From NCBI GenBank assembly GCA_022478985.1, contig JAKSZP010014881.1:1-64000 (forward strand): a DNA stretch of 64,000 bases. The letters are read 5' to 3'. Under the pieces are notes generated by a model, which saw only the letters and a list, made by a program, of their open reading frames with translations, had not been told where the DNA came from and did not search any database. The stretch comes from Massospora cicadina. Taxonomy: Eukaryota > Entomophthoromycota > Entomophthoromycetes > Entomophthorales > Entomophthoraceae. Positions 10,691-54,138 of the stretch are shown piece after piece. The translations under genes and the position numbers were made by a program. Position 1 is the first letter of the stretch. Each line of letters opens with the position of its first letter.

Positions 10691-12250
10691 CTGAAAATGT
10701 TTGATTGCTACTGAACTCATGGATCAAAGCGGTATTGACCTGTTCCCAGGTGGTGCACTCCTTCAAATGGGGAGTCATGATTTCCTGGGCGATGCTATTT
10801 GGGCAGGAGTGGATATTCTTTACCTTTTGCTGATTGGTGGCCTCCTCCATGGAGCTCTCATATGCGTATAGGAAGGAGTCAATGCTCTCCTGGCTGGGGT
10901 GAACCTTTCTTTAAAACTATGTTTAAAGTTAGTTACAAGCAGAGTGGAAAGGGTGTTAACACCAGGGAAGGGCGCTGGCTCTGAAATCTCAGTCTCCGCA
11001 TAGTTGAGGGGGCCCTGCTGATATAGCCGTCTTCATAGGCCCTCAAGGCCCTCTTGGATATCATCCCAATTTTGGTTGAGGGTGGAAACGGATGCCTTAT
11101 TTGCGATAGCTCCTTTAAAGATTGAATGTCGGTGCCCTGAAGGCGAAGTTGGCTCTAGAGGGTGGTCAAACAGGTTCCAAACCCTTGATAAGTTTGCTCC
11201 AGCTGAAAGATGCAAGTATTGGTAATTTTGGCAAAAGCACTTAAGTTGCCCATTTCATCTGACAGGGCAACATTGGAGACCCTAGGGTCAAGGGGGACTC
11301 CATTCACATGGAGTTTTCATCCCTGCGATATATTCCAAATTTGATCACATAGGGCAGCTAAGGCTGTCATCACATCCTTCCTCCATGGGTCCTCAGGGCT
11401 AACAGCGGTGGGAGCTGAGGGACCTAGGGGCCCATGAGTTTCCTGGAGACCATCTGGCCCTTTGGGTCTCTCTCGCCCTTCAGGATCTTCACTTCTGGAG
11501 GGGTAGTCGTGAGAGGCAAGCTCTCAATAGTGTTGTAGAGTTTGTAACAGATCCTCATCTTGTAGGAGGAGTCCATTCCAAGTTGCTTTGAGGAGTTGGA
11601 CGTTATGACGCAGCTCGTCCTCAAGATAGCCAGAGATCCCGCTAACACCACAATTTGATCTTAGACCGCGTTGATCAACTGTCAGTTGTCAATAATGGCC
11701 TCACGGTTCTTATGAACAAGGAGGAGGCTGAATTATAAAAATCAACGATGTGGGTGTGCAGGGCCTGGGTGAGCCCCAGTTGTCAAGAGACCTCCTGATG
11801 GTGCAACCCATCTAGTTGGAATAGATGATGGATAGCTGAGTTAACAAAGTTTCAAAGCTAGCGTTTGGGACCCAGTGTGAGTTCTTTTGCTGGCAGCTTG
11901 GCTGAGTCATAAAGGTCCCGCATGTAGAGGCAACAGAAGAGGCATGGTAATGGCTGGAGCAGGCACCCACGGAATAGATGACATTTATTAATTGTTTGAC
12001 GACCTCGTTAAGGTTCTTGTAATGAAGTTGGTACTAAAATCCATTGATAGAAGGCAGGGTGAACTGTAATGCAGCCCAGAATTCTAAACTTTCAGGTTGG
12101 GAGGCTGGTATTTCATGTTGCAAGGTACTAACCCATTTGGCAACGCTTCTTGACTGACCAGCGGCTTGGTCTTCAGCGCTATTAGTATTTTTCATTGTGA
12201 TAGACATTTTCACTTGGGACAGCTCAGAGCCTCCTGTAGTGAGCAGCACG
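10690..12250 (-). pseudogene. Gyp-3 gag remnant with collagen-like segment
   Basis: The N-terminal frame (12249-12034) begins near the 5' LTR. Around 11510-11400 the minus strand reads PEGRERPKGPDGLQETHGPL, in which Gly occurs every third residue at 5 of 8 triplets and the gaps are one G-to-A step from Gly. A capsid-like block with THLKECTTWEQVNTALIHEF follows at 10850-10665, matching TWAQVNTALIKGF in Gyp-4. The conserved stretch MTALAALCDQIWNI links the two parts. No zinc knuckle remains because the deletion removes it. Confidence 0.7.
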
Positions 12251-17972: not shown

Positions 17973-20606
17973 AGCTGTTCCCCTCCATGTCCTGGGGGTT
18001 GCCAGCGCTTAAACCTGCTGCTGTGAGGCGGCTAGTTTTGAGTCCTTTAGCTTGACTATTAGCTGCAATCCGTGAGGAGCGTCGAGGGTTCTGAGGGGAA
18101 GGAGAGGGTGGGGGGCGGAGGACCCAGTAAGCCAGCCCTAGGATGCTGCCCCCGCTCCGTTGCAGGGGAAGGACCTGAGGGTGCTCAATGGTGACCTCCG
18201 CGGTGTCCCCATTTGATGAGTCTGAGTCCATATTCACTTCCTCCAACACTTCAAAGGATCCGCGCAAAATGGACTGTGGGGTTGGGGTAGGACTCTTTGA
18301 GGTGGCACTTCTACCGCAGGCCGCGAGTTGCCAGTCCATGCTGGTGGGCATAGCTCCATAGGGAGCTGAGGGCTGATGCGATAAATCGCTGGTGGAGGTT
18401 GGTGGGGGTGCCGCGGAGCCCTGAGTGGGGGTGGCTGACGAGGGGCACCCTGTGGGAGATGCCTTGCGCTTGGTGAGAGAGGGAGTTGACTCTGGGAGAT
18501 TGGAGGGGGTGCCCATTGGAAGGGGGGCATGAGCGCGAAGGTATCCCACACCAATAGTGGGGTTAGCTGTTTCAACTGCTAGGCGTAAGGCCTCAGGGGA
18601 CAGGTCTTGAACGGGAACCCATTGTGTGGGTTGAGGAATTGCTGCTGCAGCCATGTGGGATCGTTTTTGGCCTGGTTTAGGCCCCTGGGTGGTGGCTAAG
18701 AGGGCTTGTTTTCGAGCTGTGCAGCCACTATACAAGTGTCCAAGGGCGTTACACCATGAACACCGGGGGCGCGCCTGATCAGGGTCGACAAAAAGATCTC
18801 AGGGCATGCCCCAACTACCGCCACACGAGGAATAACCTCAATGTTACGGGATACAGTGGGGGAGGGGATGAACGACGCCCTAGCAGTGCGAGCTCTTTGA
18901 GTGGGAGCATAGTAAGAGGGGACGCTAAAGTCCACTGAAAGAACAGACCCAAACTCCATTAAACCACGATGGAGTGCCAGTTTAAGAGACTCAGGATCAA
19001 CAGTCGTTGGTAGGTTGGAAAAAGTAACCCATGAAATTTTCTCCAGGTGAGAGCGTGTGCGGGAGATGCGAAGAGATCCGCGTGGAATAATGACCTGGAG
19101 GGTGGCAGCATGGTCAGCAAGGGCAGCTTCAGTGAAGCCCACATCGATGTAGTGGCCCTCCACTGATTCATGGATGATGGTGTTAATAGGGAATGTCTCC
19201 GCAATCGCTGCAAAGTATGAGAAGTAATCCTCTGTATAGAATTCAACAGGGTTATGCCCATAATAAAGGCGAATTGCGTGTGAGAGGGTTGAGCGAGGTA
19301 GAGCTTTTTGCGCTCTAGTTTCGGCCCATTTCTTCTTAACATCAGCAATAAACGCCACTTCACGGGGATCAGCTTTGGGTAGCGTTGGTGCCAGAGGTTT
19401 TTGCCACGCCCCAGTGGCTCCTTTGGTACGTTTGTGTTTGCTTTGGGCTGCAATTGCAGGTTGAGTGTGAGCTGTTGGTTTGGACAAGTTTGCGGAGTTC
19501 CCTTGTTTCTGGAATGTTACAGCAGTTGCTGGCGTCATATTAAATTGAGGGGCGGTTTGTTGGGCCTCGCTAAATTGGGGAGGCCCATCCAGATTGGAAT
19601 TAACTCAGCCAGTTGGGAGGAGGGAGATGTTTCATCACCATCCCAATCTATTTGGGTAAATTCAGCCCGAGTATTTGCTGTGATTTCGTGGGCAAAACTC
19701 ACTGGCTGATTGGTGAATTGGTCGTTTTCAGCATATTGAGATAAAGTGCCGACTTGAGAAGTGCCGATTATGGGGTTTAAATGGGACGGGTGAGAATGGA
19801 ACTGGTGTGAAGTTCCAAAATCTGAACCATTTAAATCCCCATTGGGAAGAGTAGATTGTCCCAATTTGGTGCTTAGTGAACCAGAATGTGCGGCTAATCC
19901 AACCTTACATCCGAGGGTTTGGGGGCCAGGTGATTGTTGGGCCTCGCTAAATTGGGGAGTCCCATCCAGCTTGGAATTAACTCCAGCCAATTGGGAGGAG
20001 GGAGATGTTTCATCACCATCCCAATCTATTTGGGTAAATTCAGCCCGTGTGTTTGCTGTGATTTCGTGGGCAAAACTCATTGGCTGATTAGTGAATTGGT
20101 CATTTTCAGCATATTGCGATAAAGTGCCGACTTGAGAAGTGCCAATTACGGGGTTTAAATGGGACGGGTGAGATTGGAACTGGTGTGAAGTTCCAAAATC
20201 CGAACCATTTGAATCCTCATTGGGAAGAGTAGATTATCCCAATTTGGTGCTTAGTGAACCAGAATGTGCGGCTAATCCAACCTTACATCTGAGGATTTGG
20301 GGGCCAGGTAGCTGGGTATCGCCCCTCATGGAGGGAGCCAGAAACACGGTGTCAGCAATAATAGATGGGGCTGAATTAGCTGACACAATGGGGAGGTGAA
20401 TGTCTGGATGGGCTGAGTTGCATTCAACTAAGCAGACGCCATTAAAACAGCGTGGGTGATGGCCTCCTTGGTTGGAGGGGGCCCAGCGGGTTGGTGGGAG
20501 GCAGCACACACAGAGCTGTTAGGCGTGCAGGTTGCAGAAGTGCGATCAGGTGAACTGGCGCTAGTTGGAGTAGCCCCAGGTTGGGGGGTGGTGCCTGCTT
20601 TCATGG
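17908..20606 (-). pseudogene. LINE ORF1: nucleic-acid-binding protein
   Basis: The likely start is the ATG near 20606 (MKAGTTPQPGATPTSASSPD). The N-terminal part holds a duplicated 126-codon unit. The middle (19538-18790) has a conserved core with HYIDVGFTEAALADHAATLQ and WVTFSNLPTTVDPESLK, plausibly an RRM-like fold. A zinc knuckle CSWCNALGHLYSGC (Cx2Cx4Hx4C) lies near 18770-18725. A Pro/Ser/Thr-rich tail follows to the stop at 17908. Frameshifts occur near 20430, 19607 and 18790. ORF1 proteins bind LINE RNA in a ribonucleoprotein; here that is inferred from the zinc knuckle and the position. Confidence 0.8.
19561..20309 (-). repeat. Tandem duplication of about 377 bp inside LINE ORF1
   Basis: Two copies begin at TGGGCCTCGCTAAATTGGGG (19561 and 19938) and end near GGGGGCCAGG (about 19928 and 20308). 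They differ at only a few positions. One base missing near 19607 in the left copy makes its length 377 instead of 378, so the original period was probably 126 codons. Repeated protein text includes SFAHEITANTRAEFTQIDWD in both. Confidence 0.92.
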
Positions 20607-23851: not shown

Positions 23852-25381
23852 GGTTGATGCAGGTATCTCGTTAAGCACTTTCTTAATTTTCCAAATGAAA
23901 GTAAACCAATTCTTCAGGCTATCATATGCATTTGAACCTTGTATAAGACCTTAACGTGGGGATGACTGCAGTTATGGCGTTGTCTAAGGTAATGAGGTAA
24001 GTTGTTACTGAGATCTGTGCTTGAGCGTAAATTTGGCTGATAAACTCCACAGGGCTTTCCCCTTTTTTTAGAAAAATATCCATGAATGCTTCTTTTGATT
24101 GACAAGGGTTTGGTTGCTGCAGAATTCCTAAATTAAGGTGGCACAGACCTGCACACATGTGTGGCATTATTTTATATGATTTTCCATGGTCTCATAAGAA
24201 GCGCCATTCAAGCAGGAGCGAATTTACTTTACCTTCTGACGGTCAGTAGCATACTCCATGGAACTCTCATAGTCATATAGGAAAAAGCAAAACTTTCCTG
24301 CATGGGGGAAACTTCTCCATAAACTAGGCTTAAAGTTATTTACATTAAAAGTGGAAAGTTTATTGACAGCATGAATTAATTCAGTCACAGATTTTTGGTT
24401 TTCACATAGTTTCGAGGGTCCTGTTGATTTAGCCATCATCTCAAACCATTGAGGTCCTTTTGAATGTCGTCCCAGTTACAGTTTTAGGGAGGTAATGGAG
24501 GCCTTTTTGATCAGCCTGCCCCTTTTAGGATTGAATGGCTGTGCATTGAAGAAGAAGCTGGCTCCCTAAATTAGTCAAGGGTTCATCAAACCCTTGACAG
24601 GTTTGTTCAAGTTGATAGATGCAGCTATTGGTGAGTTTGATGAAGGTGCCAGGATTATACCTCTCATTCAACAAGGCCATAATTAATAACCTAATGTTGA
24701 AAATAATCCACTTGGAGCTGGAACCCCTGATCCACACTGCAGATTTTATTTTGTAAGGAGGCAAGGGCTGTCAAAAAGTCTTTTTTACAGGAAGCGTCAG
24801 GATCAACATAAGTAGGCGCTGTGGAAACTGAGGGCTCTTGAGGCCCACAGCGACCTTCTGGCCCTTTGGGCTCTCCTGGAGATTTGGGATCTTCTGTCCC
24901 CCTAGGCCCCTAAGGCCCTTCACTCCCAGAGGCGATTTCGTGTGAGGCTAGCACCAGATAATGCAGTTGGAGGGTCCACACCAGGTCTTTGACTTGGCTG
25001 AGGCATTGATTACATGCAGCCTCAAGGAGCTGTATCTTGATAAAGATGGCCTTCAAGTTATCCAGAAATTCTGCTATCAACACTTCAAGTTGATTACATG
25101 TTTCATTGATTAACTGATGGTTGTCAACATTGCTTCATGATTGTCATAGACAAAAGAGGAGGCAGCATTATAGAAACTGACAACATGGGATTATAAGGTT
25201 TGGTAAGCCCTAATTGTTTGGAGTAAAGTGGTGGTGCGACCCAACTGCTTGTAAAGGAAATATAGAAGATGGACAAAATTCCAGAGATAGCTGTAAGTCC
25301 AGGGTAACTTCCCATTTGTGTGTATCAGGAGATCTTCCCATATTCAAATAAAAAGTTTCCAAAGAGTGCAGCTATACCCCT
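23852..25381 (-). pseudogene. Gyp-2 gag with collagen-like segment
   Basis: Minus-strand gag continues from 39496-39893 across Chr-2. Around 24935-24830 it reads GPRGTEDPKSPGEPKGPEGR and then CGPQEP, a Gly-X-Y run with interruptions at codons one G-to-A step from Gly. It is followed by a DFLTALASLQNKI block matching MTALAALCDQI in Gyp-3. Capsid-like sequence lies at 24440-23910, including KSTGPSKLCENQKSVTELIH. Frames shift repeatedly. The 25381 end is where the Chr-2 LTR starts. Confidence 0.65.
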
Positions 25382-28331: not shown

Positions 28332-28892
28332 TGTTGGGGATTCAACTACAATGACTGAAATTACTCAAGGTTGAGATTCAATATCTCAGTCTAATGAGAT
28401 TGCAAAATCTACGTTGGAGATATCCAATTTTAGGATAGAATAAAGATCAACCCTTCAGAGTTCTCAACCTTCTCTGAAGGATGTTAAGCTATCTTATGAG
28501 GCAGAAAATAATATAAGAAGGTCAGTCTCATCAAATATGAATCTTATCAGATCTGGCCATCACAAGTATGGTATTAATAATCAGCAATATTGGTCATCTA
28601 ATAGGAAAGATCTTACCTCAGGTGCATCCCAAAAATCCTCACAAATAACTACTAAATCTACCCCTATAAATATCCCTCATTTTTTTACAAAATAAAGTAC
28701 CTCTATTTTTGTCTCACGTAGCTTAATTTTGGTCTTTTCCTACAAGATTCTGTATTTCTGATTGGAATCAATTATAGCAATGGAACTAATAACTTCATTG
28801 CACTTGTGTTGATCTTCGATAGAGCCACAGAACTAATAATTATGTAGCCTTCATAGCACCTACTTATCGTAATTTCTCATGAAATTCCAATA
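28332..28892 (+). repeat. Gyp-4 5' LTR
   Basis: Starts TGTTGGGGATTCAACTAC. It aligns closely with 34699-35259, sharing long identical blocks such as the one around AATATAAGAAGGTCAGTCTC. A TATA-like AATAATATAAG lies near 28505 and an ACAAAATAAAG polyadenylation-type signal near 28690. Confidence 0.9.
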
Positions 28893-31190
28893 CTGTTGCT
28901 CCCTGCCAGGTCTTCTTCTGAGGCTATCTGGTGAAAATATACTTTCACAACAATGAATATCTCTAGTGAAGAAAGCCCCTCTTCTGAGGAATCAATGAGT
29001 ATCACCCAAACGGTACACTACAACAGGCAAGAGATGCCTTCCACTAATACAAATAATCTGCAAAATTAAGTTTCTATGGACTTGGCCATAGAGGTCCCTG
29101 AATAAAATAATTATTAGATTCAAGCTGCAAATGTAGATGAAACGTTCAAAGGCTTGATAAGGGGGGCTATACAGCCTGGTGCACATCCTAATCAAGACTG
29201 AGCATCTAAAGTTGCTGAAGTAATGATGAACTTATACAACCGAGCAGTGTTACAACCTTTTAAAATTGGTTTGGCTAGAACTGAGCAGTAACTCCGTAAT
29301 TATGTACATCCCACTGTTCACCATGTACTCCAGATTTTGGGGTTGCATCATCTCTAGATCCAGCGCCAGTTGACCCAGGCGCAACAATTTTACTCTCAGT
29401 TAGCCCTGTTTTATGAGACAGCTTCTAACTTTGGACAGGATAATCTGAAAGCCATACTTGATAATAGAAGAGAAATCAACAATATATATAATAAGTTATT
29501 GTGAATTGATAAAGGAGTTGTAATGAGATTATGAGACAACTGGGACAAATTGTGAGCCAAACATGACGAGCGCTTTGTTAAGCTTGACGGGCTAGTCCAA
29601 CATTTTGTCTGAATGGTGGATACTATCAGAGAAGGTGGACCCGGCCCTGTTGGTCCTCCTGGACCGCTGGGACCACCTAGTTCCCCTTTGGTAACCCCAG
29701 GACCTCCTAATGATTGTGGTCCTCCCAGTCTGGTGGGTCAACAAGATCCGCCAGGGCCAGCAGGTCAAGATGGGTCGCGAGTACCCCCTGAACCTCCTGG
29801 TCCCCCTGGCTCCTCGCTTCCAATGCATGATTATGAACCTTTGATTCTACTAGTATCGAGAATATAGGCATTATAAACCCAAATCCAAGCCATTGCACAA
29901 GGATGTTTTTTATCATTAAAAGGCCTTCTGACTGACCTAGATTACTCTTTAACCAACTTATTGTATGGCGTGGATAGTGCTCATCATCAATGTGATGTTA
30001 ACCAAACTACATAAGAATCACAGTTTGAAAGGTTAAACTCTGCCATTGAATGGTTATCTGCTAGATGTAGAGTACTTGAAAAAAAGCAGGAAGAGATGAT
30101 CACTGCAATTACTAACTTGAAGCAACAACCTGCGAATGATCATCTTGCTCAATGTGTTCATTTTTTACAGGAGGACCGCAATCATTTAAGGCAACAAGTT
30201 GATTGAAATCCCACTTAAACTCATATCCCAAAATCTGAACCTTGAAGCTGATCCGGTCATAGTATCAGGTGTACATGTTTTGAGTAATGAGCCCAATACC
30301 TTCAAACCTACCTTTAAGGATGAGTTTGAGCCGGGTGAAATATTATCCATTTGTTTACTCTTTGTCTATGATCTTGCAATGGATGGGCAACAGATCAACA
30401 GAAATTCTGGCATATTACCTCTTGCCTAAGCTAGTACGCTTAAAAAATCATAGCTCCTCACCTGAATGTTTGCAATACATGGGCTCAAGTGAATACTGCC
30501 CTTATTAAGGGATTCAGGAGTGATCAAATCCTTTCTAATCAAAAGAAAGCCTTTATGAGTATTCCAATCAAATGAGGAGAGTCCATCCAATATTTCGCTA
30601 TAAGATTCTACCATGAGGCCCAGATTCTTGCTACTTGCTTTTGGATTATGAAAGATGATACCATATCAACTGTAATGAGGGCGTTTGCTTCTCGCACTCA
30701 GTTGCTACTACATTTAAAATCACTTAAATTAAATTACAATTCCATTATCAACATCAAAAAAGCGCTCATAGAAATTCCTAATGGTGTGGTACACCTGACC
30801 TCTGCTAATAACCCTTGTTCATATATCCATGCAATGCCACCTAAACTAAACCTAAACTGAAGAAGGAACCATGCACTTATTGTAGTCTCATGGGTCATGT
30901 GGTATCTCAATGTTGGAAAAAACAGGCAGATGAGTTGAAAAAGAGGAATCAGCGTAGGGCAAGAGGCTCCCTATGCTGACATACCTTCTGTGCCTCAATC
31001 GACACCTTTTAACTCTTCTACAGACTTTTATGTGATATCTGCTCCTGGTGAGCTTGATGTCCCTGATGAATTAGCCAGAAAAGATACTATTTCTGCTTAC
31101 GCTTCTGTTTATTCTTCTTCTAATTCAATTCAAACTGATTAGTCTCTTGGTGTTTCAATCCCAAACTTTGGCACTGATGTGACCCAGGTG
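28893..31190 (+). pseudogene. Gyp-4 gag with collagen-like segment and zinc knuckle
   Basis: From the N-terminus: an acidic Ser/Glu-rich start (SSEESPSSEESMS near 28970), then at 29613-29867 an open stretch with GGPGPVGPPGPLGPP and later PPGPAGQDGSRVPPEPPGPP, a clear collagen-like Gly-X-Y run. The capsid core lies at about 30460-30650 (TWAQVNTALIKGFRSDQ and QYFAIRFYHEAQILATC). A CCHC knuckle CTYCSLMGHVVSQC is at 30872-30913. The zinc knuckle binds element RNA. What the Gly-X-Y segment does is unknown; it could trimerise or act as a flexible spacer. Stops and frameshifts are scattered through it. Confidence 0.8.
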
Positions 31191-31640
31191 GAAGTCATCA
31201 TGCATAAGGTGAAAGTTTTGGCTATTATTGATACGAGATCGCCCATCAAGGTAATCTCATCCAGGCTTTTGAAAAAAATAAAATTGGCGCAGACTTAAAC
31301 CATTCACAAGACTACAGAACTGTTAGTCCTTTCTACACTAAATCTATAGGAACTTATTCTTCTCTTCCAATGCGCTTTGGAAAGTTGGTTGTGTCAGCCT
31401 CTGCAATAGCGTTGGACAAAAACTGCTATTGCCTTCTATTGGGAACAAAATTTCTCATTGATTTTGATGCAATAATCAGCCTTAAGGACAATTACCTTTC
31501 TTTAATTGGGTACCGAGTACCTTTAGTATTACAAAATTTTCTTAATAGTAAAGACAAACTCAAACGACGTGTTTGCTTATTGGAAACCTCACTTCTATCT
31601 CTTGTCTTGAATACTAAAATTTTGGGACCAATGACTATAC
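31190..31640 (+). pseudogene. Gyp-4 aspartic protease
   Basis: The active site reads LAIIDTRSPIKVISSRLLKK (from about 31218). Asp-Thr is kept, but the Gly is Arg (AGA), so it is inactive. After a frame change the body of the protease is readable at 31370-31500 (YCLLLGTKFLIDFDAIISLK, the usual LLGxDFL block). The same DTG-to-DTR change occurs independently in Gyp-1 as DSR. Confidence 0.75.
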
Positions 31641-31679
31641 TTTCACCTCCATCAGCTTGTGCCTCTGAGGTTATGCCTT

Positions 31680-31960
31680 TATATTCTAACTCTCCGATTA
31701 CCATTCCCTCAAAATTTCAAGTCATAATTGATATTGGAGTACAAGTATTTGTACCCACTGATCATGTGTTAGAGATCTTCTGTAACCAAAATCCCTCTCA
31801 TTTGGAGGCTTTACCCTGCCCTGGAATTCTTGACCCTGCCTACAATGGGACTGTTTTAGTTCTACTAGCTAATCTCACTTCTTGACCTATGCGATTAATT
31901 GCAATAACCCCATAACCTATGTGCAGCATACTCTTGTGAGTGAAATCTTATCCGCGTGGG
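31680..31960 (+). pseudogene. Gyp-4 dUTPase-like domain
   Basis: In one open frame with the protease body: ITIPSKFQVIIDIGVQVFVP, then an HVLEI block, then PGILDPAYNGTVLVLLANLT (motif at 31823-31852). These match dUTPase: a beta-strand with Pro, the Val-Ile-Asp-x-Gly-Val/Ile block, and motif III with Asp and Tyr that contact the deoxyribose and uracil. The Arg-Ser-Gly/Ser motif (II) is not recognisable (QNPSHLE stands in its place), and the C-terminal motif is lost after the stop at 31885. The position between protease and RT is the same as in Gyp-2 and Gyp-1. Family assignment is by motif only. Confidence 0.75.
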
Positions 31961-32960
31961 ATGTGGAGATTTGTGTTTATTTTGGATAGAATATCCCCCT
32001 ATCATTGCTAGAAAGGACGTCAAATTTGGGAAATCACTCACTCCAGAACAACAGCATGAAGCTGAGGCTCTGATTGAAGAGTATAAGGATATATTTGCCC
32101 AAGGTCCTGGATATTTTGGACTAATAGAAGATGTGCATCATCAGATGCAAACCGGGGATACTCCCACTATTTGAGCTTGACCATATCACAAATTTAAAGT
32201 CGAGGAGGCTCAGGTCTCAGCGATATTGAAACAACTCCTTGATGCGGTGATGTTAACGCCTTCTAAGAGCCCATGGGCTTCTCCTTTGCTACTCATTTGG
32301 AAAAAGAATGGGGTCCATAGAGTGGTTATGGACTATCGTCAGCTCAATGCTGTTACCCAAAAGGATTCTTATCCTCTACCTCGCATTGATGATTCATTAA
32401 GATTATTGTCTGGGTCACAATGCTTCTCATCTATGGACCTTGCGAGTGGTTATTGGCAAATTGACCTGGCTCCAGAAGATCATCAAAAGTGTGCTTTAAT
32501 CTCTAGTGAGGGGTTATTTGAGCCCATTCATATGACGCAAGGGCTTTGTAATGCCCCTGCTACTTTTCAACAAGCCATGGATAGCTTGTTTGAGGAGTTG
32601 AAACTTTCTTGTGCTTTAGTATACTTGGACAATGTTACTGTGTTTTTTGCACTTTTAGCGAGCTTTTGGCTAATTTTTTTAGCACTAGGTGGTCCCAAGA
32701 GCATTTGGCTCATTTAAGAAAGTATTTGGTTTGATGCGTCACACTTCAATTAAGATAAAACCATCCAAGTGTGTTTTTTAAGACTGAGATGGAATTCTTA
32801 GGTCATAAAGTCAATTTTGAGGGATTTTACCCTTATCTAATAAGATACAAGCTATTTTGGACATGCCTGTTCCTAAAAGCTTTCGCGATATTCAAATGTT
32901 TTTAGGGATGGTTGGTTATTACTGAAAATTCATCCCCCATTTTGCAGAGATTGTGGAGCC
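31960..32960 (+). pseudogene. Gyp-4 reverse transcriptase
   Basis: Upstream linker at 31956-32174, then RT at 32226-32717: SPWASPLLLIWKKNGVHRVV, then MDYRQLNAVTQKDSYPLPRI, then FSSMDLASGYWQIDLAPEDH with the first catalytic Asp kept, and GLCNAPATFQQAM. The catalytic box is YLDNV: the second Asp of YLDD is Asn (AAT), so the enzyme is inactive. A one-base loss and a 25-bp LINE stub follow at 32641-32698. The EMEFLGHKV block at 32790-32816 then resumes RT. Confidence 0.9.
32674..32698 (-). mobile_element. Ultra-short 5'-truncated LINE insertion (25 bp)
   Basis: TTTTTTT followed by AGCACTAGGTGGTCCCAA matches the poly(T) and first 18 bp at the 3' end of the LINE (AGTACTAGATGGTCCCAA, 14385-14402) at 16 of 18 positions. 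It is flanked by GAGCTTTTGGCTAA (32660-32673) and GAGCATTTGGCTCA (32699-32712), a 14-bp target duplication with two mismatches. The inserted text breaks the RT block after YLDN where related elements have none. Confidence 0.8.
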
Positions 32961-33440
32961 TTTAGTTTACCTTTTTCACAATGAAGTCCCTTTTGTATGG
33001 GAAGAATTGCAGCAAGCTTTTGATATGTTGCACAAAGCCTTAGTGAGTGCACCAATCTTAGCCCATCCAGATTTTTCCAAACCTTTTATGCTCTTTACTG
33101 ATGCCAGTAATATTGCTATTGGAGCCATTCTGGCTCAACATGATTTCAGCCTGGTTGATCACCCCAATGCGTACTATAGTAAACTCCTTTCTAAGTCTGA
33201 ATGCAATTATAGCTTTACCAAGAGAGAATGCATTGCAGTTTTGTCCGCCATCAAGCATTTCCGCCCTTACCTCTATGGCAAGCTTTTCACTATTGTCACA
33301 GATCACGCTTCCTTGAAGTGGTTGTAACAAAATTAAGGATCCTGATGAGCGCTTATCTAGATGGGCGTTAAAGCTCCAGAATTATGACTTTACTTTTCAA
33401 CATCACGCTGAAGCTATTCATCAAAACGCTGATGGACTTT
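32960..33440 (+). pseudogene. Gyp-4 RNase H
   Basis: The open stretch 32953-33327 contains LFTDASNIAIGAILAQHDFS, then NYSFTKRECIAVLSAIKHFR and TIVTDHASLKWL. The catalytic Asp of TDAS, the Glu of KREC and the Asp of TDHA are all present. A frameshift after KWL shifts the tail (DPDERLSRWALKLQ-type block) to another frame. RT precedes and integrase follows. Confidence 0.9.
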
Positions 33441-33445
33441 CTTGA

Positions 33446-34640
33446 TTGCCTGTACTAACATTATTCTCTGCTGAGGAGGATCGCATCTATGACTTGATTG
33501 GTAGACCTGAGCTCTGGTACCAGGAATCTAAGGATGTTATATCAAAGCTACAATCCTTAACTGAAGAAACTCAGGTTATAGAAGGTTCATTCTACAAGAA
33601 GTTGGGATCTAAGTGTTTGCCCTTTATTTGGCCCTCTGTGAGGACTGGTATTATTATGGTGGCTCATCAAACTGTAGGGCATGGAGCTGTCGTTAAGACC
33701 CTACAGTGGTTGAAAAATCATTGTTACTGGGATAACATGCTGGAATCTTTACACGATGTGTTGGAGACTTGTCTCACTTGCCAACAATAACGTGGTGGAA
33801 TCCTGATGTTCCAAAACAAAATTGTGGGACCTTCCAAAATTTTCTCTACTATGAGTATTGATGTGGTGGGTCCTCTCCCTACTGCCACTTATGGACATTG
33901 ATATATTCTGTTAGCTATCGTCCATTTTACTAAATGGATTGAAGCTATCTCAGTCTCCACAGTCTACGGTGAGGCTACGGTGTCCTTTCTTTTTAAGCAA
34001 GTTTTCACCAGGCATGGTATCCCAAAAGTCCAGTTATCAAATAATGGGACCAAATTCATTTCTCAGGTAGTATCCGAGCTGAATAACTAATGAGTACCTA
34101 TCAGTAATTTACATCCCCTTACAATCCTTCTACTAATGGTGCAGTTGAATGAGCAAATGGTACCCTTGTATCCATTCTCAAAAAGATGACTTCCAATGAC
34201 CTAGTAGATGGAATCACCTTTTGCCTAGTGCGATGTTAGCCTAAAGAGTTAGTTACAATCATATATTTGTAATCTCTCCTTTTAAAGCTTTATATGGTTG
34301 GGAACCTATTATCCCCTCAAGTGTACAACCTATACTTGAGGAGGCTACCCCGCAAACTACTGATTTAGCTATGGGGACTAGCTGTTAAAATCATCCAAGT
34401 ATAAGCTTTAGCTTCAAGTTCCCTTGCTTCTACCACCTTAAAAGAGGGAACAATAACCAACGCTAGTAGACCTACGCTACCTGTATATCAAATCAGGGAT
34501 CTTGTACTCTTTTATCACCATAGGCCGGGAGGAAGGATTCACAAGCTTGACACCTTTATGGGCTGGTCCTTACCGTATTATTTATTGGTGGGGTATTGAA
34601 CATTCCATTGCAGCTGTTGATACTGGTACTGTTATCAATA
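33446..34640 (+). pseudogene. Gyp-4 integrase
   Basis: The zinc-binding domain at 33650-33790 reads VAHQTVGHGAVVKTLQWLK and then ETCLTCQQ (HHCC pattern). The core starts with MSIDVVGPLPTATYGH (first catalytic Asp at 33859-33861). The second catalytic site reads HGIPKVQLSNNGTKFISQ, where Asp has become Asn (AAT). The third region near 34120-34180 reads like a YNPSTNGAVE segment with its Glu. A degenerate C-terminal part follows to 34640. No chromodomain. Inactive by the Asp-to-Asn change and several stops. Confidence 0.85.
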
Positions 34641-34698
34641 GAGTGCCGTAGATTTATTTTTACGTATGTTCCCCCTAGGCAAGATCTTGAGGGGGCAT

Positions 34699-35259
34699 TG
34701 TTGGGGATTCAACTACAATAACTGAAATTACTCAAGATCGAGAATTAATATCTCAGTCTAATGAGATTGCAAAATCTACGTTGGAGATATCCAATTTTAG
34801 GATAGAATAAAGATCAACCCTTCAGAGTTCTCAACTTTTCTGAAGGATGTTAAGCTATCTTATGAGGCAGAAAATAATATAAGAAGGTCAGTCTCATCAA
34901 ATATGAATCTTATCAGATCTAGCCAAACACAAGTATGGTATTAGTAATCAGCAATATTGGTCATCTAATAGGAAGAATCTTACCTCAGGTGCATCCCAAA
35001 AATCCTCACAAATAACTACTAAATCTACCCCTATAAATATCCCTCATTTCTAACAAATAAAGTACCTCTATTTTTGTCTCACGTAGCTTAATTTTTGGTC
35101 TTTTACTACAGGATTCTGTATTCCTGATTGGAAATCAATTATGGCAGCGGAACTAATAACTTCGTTGCACTTGTGTTGACCTTCACTAGATCTTTGGAAC
35201 TTTTAATTTTGTAGCCTTTGTAGCACCTCTTGATTATAATTTCTCACGGATTTCCAATA
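34699..35259 (+). repeat. Gyp-4 3' LTR with preceding polypurine tract
   Basis: Partner of 28332-28892. The tract CTTGAGGGGGCA immediately before it would prime plus-strand DNA synthesis. The downstream flank CCAGG is the target duplication. Confidence 0.9.
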
Positions 35260-35264
35260 CCAGG

Positions 35265-36008
35265 TTAGACAATATGCTTAAGAAAGTTTGTTATCTAAAG
35301 AAACATCACCAGTTGCGTCTTCCATCGTTTTTGTCAAGAAGGCTGATGGTTCTCTCCAACCCTGGTTGTATTATGAACATCTGAACAAAATTACAGTACA
35401 CAATCCCTACTCCTTTGCCCCTGAAGCAAACTATCAGTCAAGAGATTGCTAAGTCACGTGTGTTCTCAAAGCTTGATCTTGTTAACGCCTTCAACCAAAT
35501 ATGGTTGATGGAATGGCTAGAATGGCTTACCACGATCCAAACAAAACAAGGTATTTTCAATTCCATGTAAAGCCATTGGTAGAATGCGCCAGCCACATTC
35601 CAAAGAATGATCAATAGTGTGCTGAGTGTTCTCCAATTTGCTTGCGCAGTCACATATATTGATGACATCTTGGTTCACTCCCCAACTTTAAAGCAACATG
35701 CAAAAGATTTGGAGGCAGTAGTGGATGCTTTGCATAAGGCAGGCCTATAAGTTAAGCCTTTGAAATGCGAGATTTATAAGGAGGAAGTTACCTTTCTCAG
35801 AAACCTTGTCCTAAAAAATGGTTATGCGATTCTCCCCCAGAAAGTTGGACGCCATCTGCGAATGGCCAGCTCCAACCACCCAAAAACAATTAATAAGTTT
35901 CTTGGGCACCATTATTTTCCTGAAGAAATTTTCCCAGGCCCTTTCCCAGTTAGCCGCTCCACTTCACCCCCTCACAGGTAAGAATGTACCATTTTGTTGG
36001 ACACCTGA
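35265..36008 (+). pseudogene. Chr-2 reverse transcriptase
   Basis: RT resumes right after Gyp-4. Readable blocks are SIVFVKKADGSLQPW near 35330, SRVFSKLDLVNAFNQIW near 35457-35505 (catalytic Asp kept), NAPATFQRMIN near 35585, and the catalytic box YIDDILVHSP at about 35656-35685, with both Asp intact. The later EVTFLRNLVLKNG (FLGxxV block) and a thumb region run to 36008. Frameshifts occur between blocks. Confidence 0.85.
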
Positions 36009-36491
36009 GTGCCAGTAGAATTCAAGTCAATTAGAAGAGGTGATCTTACCACCCCCATCCTAAAACATGTGGACCCTTCCAAGTCATATATCTTTGCTTG
36101 CAATGCTTCATCAGCGGCAGTGGATGCAGTTCTACTCCAGGAGCACAATGGTCTAGAACATCTATTCGCTTACTTTTCCCGGAAATTCTCCTCTACTGAG
36201 CAATCATGGGCCATCTATGATAAGGAGTTGGCAGCTATAGCATGGGCTTTGACTCATTGGAGGTATCTGTTACAGGGTGCCCAGCATGAATTAATGATGC
36301 GTATGGATCACCAAGCTCTTCTGTATTTCTGCAAACCACAGAAATTGTCATATAGACAAGCTCATTACTATTGGGATTTGTGCAGTTTCAATTTTAAATA
36401 TAAATTCGTGAAAGGCGCATTAAACGTGATCCATGATTTACTTAGCCGCAGCCCAGCTTACTACCCTCAGACTCAGATAAAGTTGACCTAG
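36009..36491 (+). pseudogene. Chr-2 RNase H
   Basis: A 160-codon open stretch covers most of the domain: SYIFACNASSAAVDAVLLQE (the usual ETDAS Asp is Asn here), GLEHLFAYFSRKFSSTEQSW, then YDKELAAIAWALTHWRYLLQ with the active-site Glu, MRMDHQALLYFCKPQKLSYR, and a VIHDLLSRSP end. One of the most intact decayed domains in the window, but the first metal-binding Asp is lost. Confidence 0.85.
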
Positions 36492-37560
36492 TTACCATGT
36501 TTCCTCCACTCAAATTTTATCTATTGTCCCCCCTATGGTCTCATCAATCGACTTTTTTCTGATGCTCCTCTCATTTCATAAGTTTTAGCAGCTCAAATGA
36601 CCTGCTCCAAAGGAGTGGAGTTATGTGATCAATTGCAACTCCAAACTCACAAACATTCCCTATATTCCTTGGTGGAAGGTCTCATCTATTTTTTGGTCTC
36701 GGGTTTGGGTTCCTCCTCTTTTTTCAAGCTGAGGTGTTTTGGGCGCATCATGATCCTCCCACAATTGGCCATCTGGGCAACAAGAAATTATTGATTTGAT
36801 TAAACGTACTTATACCTGGGTGGGTTTATTAAAGGAAGTTCTGTCCTGATTGCCATTGTGTTACCTGCGTATGGGTCAAGTCAGATCAATCAGGGATAAA
36901 TGGCCTCCTTCATCCTTTACAACAGGCGGAGGGTCCATGGACATTGGTGTCCGTGGATTTTATTGTCAAACATCCCTGTTCTAATGGGTTTATGGCAGTA
37001 ATGGTGGTGGTCGATCATTTTACCAAATTTTCCTATTTATTCCATGTTTTTCTGTGATTACGTAAGAAGAACCATGCGTCCCTTCATGTGCCATGTGTTT
37101 TCTATGTTTGGTCTTCTTCAGGAGATCATCAGTGACCGAGGTTCACTCTTCACAGCACAGTTCTTGAATGAACTCTTATTCCTTTTATAAATATCCATCT
37201 ACCATTCCACAGTGTATCATCATCAGTCCAATGAACAAATTGAGTAGTTTTCCAAATCTTAGAACATTATTTGCACTGCTATGCTGCGGCTGTATGGGAT
37301 ACCTAGACTAATGACCTCCCCCTCGCTCAATTTGCCTACAACAACAGAATTAACGCTTCTACAGGGTTTTCTCCATATGAAGCAACGTTAAGGTATAGGC
37401 CCTCATTTTTGGTCAGTCCCTTCTTGCATTCTGAGGTCCCAGCTGCCGCAGATCATGCTGAGCACATTTGGTCTACTCAGTCCTTAGTGAGGGAGCATTT
37501 CACTAAAGCTATCAATTATTACTTGCGGTTTGTGGATTGAAAACGGCTTCCTGGTCACGA
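36492..37560 (+). pseudogene. Chr-2 integrase
   Basis: Zinc-binding text near 36790-36870 includes EIIDLIKRTYTWVGLLKEVL. The core is readable in shifting frames: a SVDFIVKHPCSNGFMAVMVVVDHFTKF-type block near 36950-37030, then LLQEIISDRGSLFTAQFLNE near 37120-37175 (second catalytic Asp kept), a VYHHQSNEQIE-type block near 37205-37245, and a FAYNN block near 37330. Broken by many stops. Confidence 0.75.
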
Positions 37561-52562: not shown

Positions 52563-53386
52563 TGTGACAGTTGAGGTCTATCCTCAGCATCACATTGCCC
52601 TGATCTTTGGTAAGACAGGGCAGGCTGTGTCTGGATGTATGGAGGAGGAGGGGCGTTGGTCCTGGCAAGGACGCCTAAGGGGCAGGAGCTTGAAGGAGGC
52701 CAAGGAGCAAGATGGGCGTCCAAGTCAAGGAAAAATGGGAATCGAGTAACATGGGTAGTTTCGAGATTTGATTTGGATTTGTATCAAGAATGGAATGGAA
52801 CGGGTGCTTGGAAGTTTCGCGGTTCGTTTGGGATTTGAAATGGAACTGGCGCGGAACTGTTGAGGATCGGAACTGGCACAGAACCATTGAGTGAGGATTC
52901 CGCGATCCTGCTGTAAGGTTTACACCAAGCATCAGTCAGATTAGCACCATAAGCTTGTGTTATATTTTATAATAGCTTGTAGCATGTGTATATAGGGAAG
53001 GAACTGGGAGCTGGAGGCTTCTCAGTTCTGTTTTCTATCAACCTGGCCCAATATTAAATAAAAGAACTTAAAATTCATATATTTATACTTTGAGTTTATT
53101 TTAAAGATATTGCCTAACTGCAGCCATGTTTGGCTTGAATCAACAAGAATTGGACTTTGAGAGTATTCTTGGGAAGCTATTGCCTCCCTTTATACCTTGT
53201 CTTGGAGTCAAGGCATGTTGCTGGGGTTAAGTATACTTGCAACTGTCTTCCAGGGGGTGCTTGTCCAATCTTGTAGCGCGCGCACAAGGAGAGTAGTATC
53301 AGGAGCCCTGTCAGCCCTATGGTCTGTAACATGGATTCTGTTGCCCAACTCATTTGTGGCTCATTGGAAGGAGCCAGTGCGTTACA
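52563..53386 (+). repeat. Chr-5 5' LTR
   Basis: TGTGACAGTT to GCGTTACA. A TATATA box lies at 52989-52994, the inferred transcript start at 53024 (35 nt later), and AATAAA at 53057-53062. An ATG in a good context (GCAGCCATG, 53126-53128) opens a 34-codon frame ending at 53230. Confidence 0.95.
53024..53033 (+). promoter_or_regulatory. Chr-5 inferred RNA 5' end (self-primer)
   Basis: AGTTCTGTTT lies 35 nt after the first T of TATATA. It is exactly complementary to the primer-binding site at 53389-53398. The same text recurs at 58171-58180 in the 3' LTR. In Tf1 the first 11 nt of the RNA fold back on the binding site and prime reverse transcription; the layout here is the same. Confidence 0.75.
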
Positions 53387-54138
53387 TTAAACAGAACTCA
53401 TTTACTTTCCTGTCGTTGTGGTGGCAAGCAAAAGAGGTGCCAGAAGAAGTGGTGTTTCCAAAGTGGTATAATCATACTGCAACACTCTTGATGGTGATAT
53501 TCTCCACCGCCTTTTTGCTTCATGAATTATACTGGGTTTTAGAGTGTGTGTCCCGGAATGGTGGGAAAGTGGTAGGGCCTGGGAAGGACAAAGGAAGAAT
53601 TCCCACGGTTTTGAAATTGGAAGACTTGGAACTGATCCACCAGACGTTTAGCCGGGTTCAGTTTCAGGGACGTTTGACAAAGGCAGCGGGTGGGGTGGAT
53701 TCGTTTGCCTTGCAGTTAAGTCAGGTTCTGTTGGCACTTCCAGTAAAGCAGTCCAACTGGGTGCGAGAACTTTTGGAAGAGCAGTCAGGGTTACCCGTAT
53801 CAGTGGAGGAATGTCTGGATTGGATTGATCGTGCAGCATGTCCGGATGAGACGCAGGATTCGGCCTGGGCGGCTTTACTGCAGTGTGGTCAAGGGAAGAA
53901 GTCAGTTGAGGAGTATGGCCAGATGTTCCGCGCATTGGCAAGAGCAGCAAAGGCACCTGAGTCTCAGCTTCCGCGAATGTTACGCCAAAACTTGCAAGCT
54001 GATTTATTATTGACAATGGCGGCGGTAAAACCTGCAGCGACGTTGGAGGAAGAGGTGGGTTTAGCCTTGCAGGTAGAACGACAGTTGAGTTTGGTATGGG
54101 CCCTTCAGGAAGTTGTGCGACCCCCAGGGGGATTCTAA
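53215..54138 (+). CDS. Chr-5 gag (start uncertain)
   Basis: An open frame runs from within the LTR (first in-frame ATG at 53215) to a stop at 54138. Its C-terminal half is Gag-like: VKQSNWVRELLEEQSGLPVS, then SAWAALLQCGQGKKSVEEYG and QMFRALARAAKAPESQLPRM, the helix-rich capsid block of Ty3/gypsy Gag (VEEYxxxFRxLA). The N-terminal half is hydrophobic and has no Gag look. The true start may be an ATG near 53491, or the 34-codon LTR frame at 53126 may join by frameshift. No zinc knuckle was seen; many Tf1/sushi elements lack one. Confidence 0.75.
   Translation: MLLGLSILATVFQGVLVQSCSARTRRVVSGALSALWSVTWILLPNSFVAHWKEPVRYIKQNSFTFLSLWWQAKEVPEEVVFPKWYNHTATLLMVIFSTAFLLHELYWVLECVSRNGGKVVGPGKDKGRIPTVLKLEDLELIHQTFSRVQFQGRLTKAAGGVDSFALQLSQVLLALPVKQSNWVRELLEEQSGLPVSVEECLDWIDRAACPDETQDSAWAALLQCGQGKKSVEEYGQMFRALARAAKAPESQLPRMLRQNLQADLLLTMAAVKPAATLEEEVGLALQVERQLSLVWALQEVVRPPGGF
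53389..53398 (+). promoter_or_regulatory. Chr-5 primer-binding site
   Basis: AAACAGAACT begins two bases after the 5' LTR. It does not begin with TGG as tRNA-primed sites do. It is the perfect reverse complement of 53024-53033. Confidence 0.8.

What the first reader, a model, noticed from the sequence alone, without database searches (positions are those of the whole stretch)
29613..29867. Collagen-like Gly-X-Y segment inside retrotransposon Gag
Gyp-4 Gag contains GPVGPPGPLGPP and later GPAGQDGS and PPGPPG runs. Gyp-2 (minus, 24935-24830) and Gyp-3 (minus, 11510-11400) have decayed forms at the same relative place, followed by a shared TALA(A/S)L block. Broken triplets there are mostly one G-to-A step from Gly. 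So a collagen-like region was an ancestral part of Gag in the lineage that also has the dUTPase-like domain (both are present in Gyp-2 and Gyp-4). A trimerising or elongated spacer in a Ty3/gypsy capsid protein is, to my knowledge, not described.
Basis: partly seen in the sequence, partly recalled or inferred. Interest (0 to 1): 0.8.

Follow-up and report, generated by a model that had tools for sequence, protein, structure and literature searches.

The report
Collagen-like stalk in retrotransposon Gag
Three decayed jumping genes in this stretch of DNA, and less decayed relatives found elsewhere, carry a short collagen-like repeat inside their shell protein, a combination for which I found no description; what it does is untested.

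Summary
Window 29613-29867 lies in the Gag of a 6.9-kb Ty3/gypsy-like LTR element (LTRs 91.5% identical). It encodes five Gly-X-Y triplets, then 8 Gly in 13 triplets in another register. Gyp-2 and Gyp-3 hold decayed in-phase forms. Over the three copies 24 of 37 in-phase codons are Gly against 2 of 74 out of phase; 9 of 13 broken in-phase codons are one G-to-A step from Gly against 8 of 72. The strongest evidence is from relatives: of nine homologous Gags, the four readable in frame through this place carry 5, 12, 13 and 16 uninterrupted triplets; one passes Pfam's collagen cut-off. The repeat sits between predicted helical parts, ahead of a capsid-like domain and a CCHC knuckle. Best reading: a conserved collagen-like spacer, possibly a short trimeric helix. 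An unassociated proline-rich hinge is nearly as likely: most flanking helices show no significant heptad pattern. The host is unknown, genomic copies could not be counted (genome search did not complete), and trimerisation is untested. Six literature searches found no description.

The parts
28332..28893 (+). 5' LTR of Gyp-4 (end to within a base or two)
   Evidence: blastn self-match, 91.5% over 565 columns
34699..35260 (+). 3' LTR of Gyp-4
   Evidence: blastn self-match; flanks CCTGG / CCAGG look like a 5-bp target duplication with one change, by eye
28953..29633 (+). Gag N-terminal part (decayed), matching the helical N-terminal region of the relatives
   Evidence: tblastn of P0001, Gyp-4 row starting at 29154; ATG by eye
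29634..29678 (+). Gly-X-Y block a of Gyp-4: 5 of 5 in-phase Gly
29700..29816 (+). Gly-X-Y block b of Gyp-4: 8 of 13 in-phase Gly, other register
29817..30206 (+). Gag second helical region (decayed)
   Evidence: tblastn alignment to P0001; helices in the models of relatives
30301..30815 (+). Capsid-like region of Gag, in two frames
   Evidence: FKPTFK... in the 30190-30429 frame and tblastn of P0001 to 30815
30872..30913 (+). CCHC zinc knuckle CX2CX4HX4C
   Evidence: tblastn of P0001, frame +2, 30863-30943
31679..31879 (+). dUTPase-like stretch, weak
   Evidence: Pfam PF00692 E 0.016, 15.4 bits, below cut-off 22
32298..32648 (+). Reverse transcriptase piece
   Evidence: Pfam RVT_1 E 4e-19
33001..33324 (+). 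RNase H piece
   Evidence: Pfam RT_RNaseH_2 E 3.5e-33, RT_RNaseH E 3.8e-29
33632..34078 (+). Integrase pieces: zinc-binding domain and weak core
   Evidence: Pfam Integrase_H2C2 E 3.8e-11; rve E 0.0043, below cut-off
24829..24918 (-). Gyp-2 decayed Gly-X-Y block, 6 of 10 in-phase Gly
23943..24376 (-). Gyp-2 capsid-like pieces
   Evidence: tblastn of P0001, E 2e-21
11407..11487 (-). Gyp-3 decayed Gly-X-Y block, 5 of 9 in-phase Gly
10692..10916 (-). Gyp-3 capsid-like piece, 61% identical to P0001 over 75 residues
   Evidence: tblastn, E 1e-21
11735..11911 (-). Gyp-3 Gag N-terminal piece
   Evidence: tblastn of P0001, E 6e-07

Best explanation
The segment is a conserved collagen-like spacer in the Gag of one LTR-retrotransposon lineage, lying between a helical N-terminal region and a second helical region that leads into the capsid domain and zinc knuckle. 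Shown: its presence in three window copies and, in phase, in the four relatives readable there. Inferred: the spacer forms, at least in the versions with 12 to 16 triplets, a short triple helix that ties three Gag chains together as a stalk, registered by the neighbouring helices, so that Gag-Gag contacts outside the capsid lattice help particle assembly. The length of the stalk is free to vary, so only its phase is kept.
For: Uninterrupted runs of 12 (P0008), 13 (P0014) and 16 (P0011) triplets; none of 20000 residue shuffles of each segment reaches its run. P0008 and P0014 differ at 60% of positions N-terminal and 50% C-terminal of the segment, yet both keep unbroken runs. X is Pro in 38 of 46 triplets and Y mostly Pro, Ser or Ala. 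P0011 passes Pfam's collagen cut-off (33.5 against 27.2 bits). Phase survives in three decayed window copies. Gyp-4 uses four Gly and four Pro codons, so this is not a plain DNA repeat. Known precedents, passages seen: bacterial collagens form stable triple helices without hydroxyproline (PMC4066190); prophage collagens pair a collagen stalk with a trimeric coiled coil (PMC3368898).
Against: No trimer was tested. Heptad (3.5-residue) periodicity reached p < 0.05 in 1 of the 5 helices around the segment (123-160, p 0.002); the nearest upstream helix (197-261, p 0.10) and the two downstream ones (349-398, p 0.17; 404-425, p 0.24) did not, and the capsid, not a coiled coil, scored p 0.01. The P0013 model shows the downstream region as two successive helices. 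P0001 has only 5 triplets plus GPPGPP and no Pfam collagen match at E 1; P0008 and P0014 score just below cut-off. The model of P0008 has mean pLDDT 44.5. Only nine relatives, and no DNA of theirs for a synonymous/non-synonymous test.
Confidence: 0.42

Rival explanations
1. An unassociated proline-rich hinge. The segment is a flexible or polyproline-II spacer between an N-terminal, matrix-like helical region and the capsid; Gly-Pro-X repeats are a convenient filler and no triple helix forms.
For: Length varies from 5 to 16 triplets among relatives. Foamy-virus Gag has this plan: N-terminal coiled-coil domain, then a proline-rich, flexible region that accounts for most of the size variation, then capsid (PMC7828637, passages). 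Gyp-4 changes register in the middle. Most helices around the segment lack a significant heptad pattern.
Against: A hinge needs no glycine at every third residue, yet runs of 12, 13 and 16 are unbroken.
Confidence: 0.4
2. Repeat slippage. A GGNCCN-type DNA repeat expands and contracts by replication slippage and is tolerated in a disordered linker.
For: Length variation; one weak 9-bp array, three copies at 29783-29809.
Against: Gyp-4 uses GGT 6, GGA 4, GGC 2, GGG 2 and all four Pro codons; the array scores only 33 with 77% matches. Phase is kept by all four readable relatives and by three window copies. DNA of the relatives was not available, so slippage there is not excluded.
Confidence: 0.12
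3. Chance enrichment in a Gly/Pro-rich stretch of decayed sequence.
For: Gyp-4 taken alone is modest: Pfam E 0.043, and its first 40 residues show no single-phase excess (7115 of 20000 shuffles).
Against: Unbroken runs at the same place in homologous Gags and the in-phase excess over the three copies.
Confidence: 0.02

Closest known systems
Foamy virus (Spumaretrovirinae) Gag
   Same: Order of parts: helical N-terminal domain, length-variable proline-rich region, capsid (PMC7828637, passages).
   Different: No Gly-X-Y repeat is mentioned in the passages seen; foamy virus Gag ends in Gly-Arg-rich sequence, here there is a CCHC knuckle. No env was looked for here.
Yeast Ty3 and other env-less LTR-retrotransposon Gags
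   Same: Capsid-like helical domain followed by a CCHC knuckle; Pol pieces of Ty3/gypsy type downstream.
   Different: PMC7828637 says that Gag of env-deficient LTR retrotransposons consists only of CA and NC domains (passage); here some 450 residues precede the capsid (P0008). The Ty3 capsid paper PMC6525542 does not use the word coiled-coil in its main text (find).
dUTPase-bearing fungal Ty3/gypsy elements (PosPlaTy3-5 of Postia placenta)
   Same: dUTPase-like domain placed between protease and RT (PMC2864245, passages).
   Different: The word collagen does not occur in that paper's main text; relationship to Gyp-4 was not tested by phylogeny.
Prophage collagen-like tail proteins (EPcl)
   Same: Short collagen stretch next to an alpha-helical region, length differing by multiples of three (PMC3368898, passages).
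   Different: Tail-fibre proteins of phages, shown to be trimers; no homology to Gag, and the Gag stretch is much shorter than most collagen domains.

Membership tests
Ty3/gypsy LTR retrotransposon | Direct LTRs around the element | tested here: met
   28332-28893 and 34699-35260, 91.5%
Ty3/gypsy LTR retrotransposon | Pol order RT - RNase H - integrase | tested here: met
   RVT_1, RT_RNaseH, Integrase_H2C2, weak rve in that order
Ty3/gypsy LTR retrotransposon | Aspartic protease upstream of RT | tested here: inconclusive
   No Pfam match to 31143-31295; a IIDTRS motif only by eye and recall
Ty3/gypsy LTR retrotransposon | RT phylogeny inside Ty3/gypsy | not tested
   No tree was built
Retroelement Gag | Capsid fold | tested here: inconclusive
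Retroelement Gag | CCHC knuckle after the capsid | tested here: met
   CX2CX4HX4C in Gyp-4, another frame, and in P0001, P0008, P0009, P0011, P0012, P0013
Collagen-like protein (PF01391) | Unbroken Gly-X-Y run | tested here: met
   12, 13 and 16 triplets in P0008, P0014, P0011; 5 in P0001
Collagen-like protein (PF01391) | Pfam gathering score of the window copy Gyp-4 | tested here: not met
   14 bits against 27.2. Of the relatives scanned P0011 passes; P0008 and P0014 fall short; P0001 has no match
Collagen-like protein (PF01391) | Triple helix | not testable with these tools
   Needs biophysics
Foamy-virus-type Gag | N-terminal coiled coil that oligomerises | tested here: inconclusive
   Long helices predicted at low confidence; heptad signal in 1 of 3 N-terminal helices

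The most novel reading that the evidence does not exclude
A retrotransposon lineage took up a true collagen triple helix as the trimeric stalk of its Gag: an intracellular, hydroxyproline-free collagen that holds Gag chains in threes during assembly of the particle.
Probability: 0.38. Interest if true: 0.8.

Novelty: new variant of a known kind. Interest (0 to 1): 0.6.

Why it matters
Collagen-like repeats are known mostly from extracellular proteins, bacterial surfaces and phage or virus fibres (partly recall; PMC12220804 passages, list viral cases). One inside Gag would be a new building block for retroelement particles and would show how a capsid protein can gain a matrix-like, oligomerising front end without env. 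It also warns that the label 'collagen triple helix repeat' in TE-rich genomes may mark Gag: Entomophthora muscae shows enrichment of both PF01391 and dUTPase (PMC11105155, passages); whether those are such elements is not known.

Tried and rejected
Chance was considered and rejected on the relatives. A simple DNA repeat was considered and found unlikely in Gyp-4.

Led nowhere: scans of viral contigs and genome contigs with A2 found no relative (129 and 153 pattern matches, none confirmed). P0011 against phage records: no match. tRNA and Rfam scans of the window: nothing. A capsid-only protein search to look for relatives without collagen returned five proteins, all already among the nine; only 7995 candidates were scored, and proteins under about 377 residues were outside its length range, so it does not show that collagen-free relatives are absent. 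A profile search of the PDB with A2 gave collagen chains at E 0.013 and weaker and Arc at E 0.52, not significant. The P0008 model is poor (pLDDT 44.5). One background count (48 of 324) is discarded because its first stretch was read in the wrong frame; one search repeats it in frame (51 of 322). In one search Gly identity between runs is 100% by construction, as the runs are defined by Gly, so it is not used as evidence.

Rows dropped: P0010 and P0015 were left out of alignments A2, A3 and A4 because their letters leave the common frame at or before the segment; P0014 was left out of A2 and A4. A1 holds all nine.

Full report
What is there. Gyp-4 is an LTR element of 6.9 kb (28332-35260). Its LTRs are 91.5% identical; over 559 ungapped columns they differ by 28 transitions and 14 transversions, K2P 0.080. 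The copy is old and broken: its Gag frame has 10 stops in 220 codons before the segment and 3 in 113 after it, none in the 84 codons of the segment. Downstream lie pieces of RT (RVT_1 E 4e-19), RNase H (E 3.5e-33) and integrase zinc domain (E 3.8e-11), in the order of Ty3/gypsy elements. A dUTPase-like stretch upstream of RT is below Pfam's cut-off (E 0.016).

The segment. Block a, 29634-29678, is GGPGPVGPPGPLGPP. Block b, 29700-29816, has 8 Gly in 13 triplets in another register. Taken alone this is suggestive but not strong: the longest run is five triplets (reached in 93 of 20000 shuffles of the first 40 residues), the single-phase excess of the 62-residue segment is reached in 467 of 20000 shuffles and that of the first 40 residues in 7115 of 20000, and Pfam Collagen gives E 0.043.

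The other two copies. In Gyp-2 and Gyp-3, in phase, Gly stands at 6 of 10 and 5 of 9 positions. Over all four blocks 24 of 37 in-phase codons are Gly against 2 of 74 out of phase; of the broken in-phase codons 9 of 13 are one G-to-A step from Gly against 8 of 72 (Fisher p 2.8e-5). Trimmed to the outermost Gly the figures are 7 of 10 against 7 of 66 (p 1.4e-4). In the rest of the Gyp-4 Gag frame it is 51 of 322. Blocks and phase were chosen by eye on Gly, so the Gly excess is partly selected for; the one-step test among non-Gly codons is less exposed to that. As a yardstick, 36 of 127816 ten-triplet stretches over the six frames of the window have six or more Gly in phase, these loci included.

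Relatives. A search with the N-terminal part of Gyp-4 Gag (X at stops) found P0001, 613 residues, E 1.7e-11; of the other six listed proteins none was better than E 0.019, and four of those six carry Pfam collagen annotation. P0001 in turn found eight more (P0008-P0015, E 1.6e-241 to 5.3e-59). P0001 matches Gyp-4 at 28% over 601 columns (E 4e-52), the Gyp-3 capsid piece at 61% over 75 and the Gyp-2 capsid piece at 45% over 98. Of these nine Gags, four can be read in frame through the segment: unbroken runs of 5 (P0001), 12 (P0008), 13 (P0014) and 16 (P0011) triplets. Shuffling each segment 20000 times never reached the runs of P0008, P0011 (15 triplets in the slice tested) or P0014, and reached that of P0001 42 times. 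P0010 starts with four triplets and then leaves the common sequence, as a frame shift would make it; P0015 leaves it earlier; P0009, P0012 and P0013 start after the segment. Pfam Collagen: P0011 33.5 bits (passes 27.2), P0008 25.3 and P0014 24.8 (just short), P0001 none at E 1. X is Pro in 38 of 46 triplets.

How it may work. The unbroken runs with Pro in X and Pro, Ser or Ala in Y have the chemistry of a triple helix, and such helices can be stable without hydroxyproline (PMC4066190, passages), also beside a trimeric coiled coil (PMC3368898, passages). I therefore lean, narrowly, to a trimeric stalk. Against it, heptad periodicity was significant in only one of five helices around the segment, not in those nearest to it, and P0001 keeps only five triplets plus GPPGPP. 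The rival, a proline-rich hinge as in foamy virus Gag (PMC7828637, passages), is about as likely. Both agree that this is a conserved spacer between an N-terminal helical region and the capsid.

What is known. Six searches for collagen in retroelement or Gag contexts listed no paper whose title or abstract start describes it. I looked at passages of PMC11105155, PMC12220804, PMC8905726 and PMC5560861; none describes a collagen-like Gag. The other listed papers were seen as listings only, searches showed 15 of 1812 and 15 of 568 papers, and the library lacks most subscription journals. From recall, some basidiomycete Ty3/gypsy Gags have Gly/Pro-rich linkers; I could not check them.

Limits. The host is unknown: the window's CpG observed/expected is 0.38 and CpA 1.20, which fits a methylated genome, and the dUTPase position recalls fungal elements (PMC2864245, passages), but neither names it. 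No DNA of relatives was at hand, so no synonymous/non-synonymous test.

Noticed in passing
19557-20309: 378-bp direct tandem duplication, 2.0 copies, 94% matches, inside open frames of a LINE-like stretch on the minus strand (LINE by eye from its RT-like text, not searched).
   Followed up: no
53161-54138: 325-residue open frame whose first part looks hydrophobic, with a Retrotrans_gag match only at residues 198-270 (E 3.7e-4, below cut-off; BT1 E 0.035 at 14-63), ahead of a chromovirus-like Pol (by eye). Possibly a membrane segment joined to a Gag.
   Followed up: no
35583-37313: A second Ty3/gypsy-like Pol right behind the 3' LTR of Gyp-4, same strand, with a 160-residue RNase H frame at 36009-36491.
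   Followed up: partly
P0009, P0012, P0013, P0015: Three relatives begin just after the collagen-like segment and one loses the frame just before it; P0012 and P0015 are both given a longest contig of 10421 bases, so they may be halves of one gag. Sequencing error, decay or a real frame shift at this place; not decided.
   Followed up: partly
PMC11105155: Entomophthora muscae shows enrichment of PF01391 and of dUTPase PF00692 (passages); the authors discuss immune evasion for the collagen. Some could be Gags like these; idea only.
   Followed up: no
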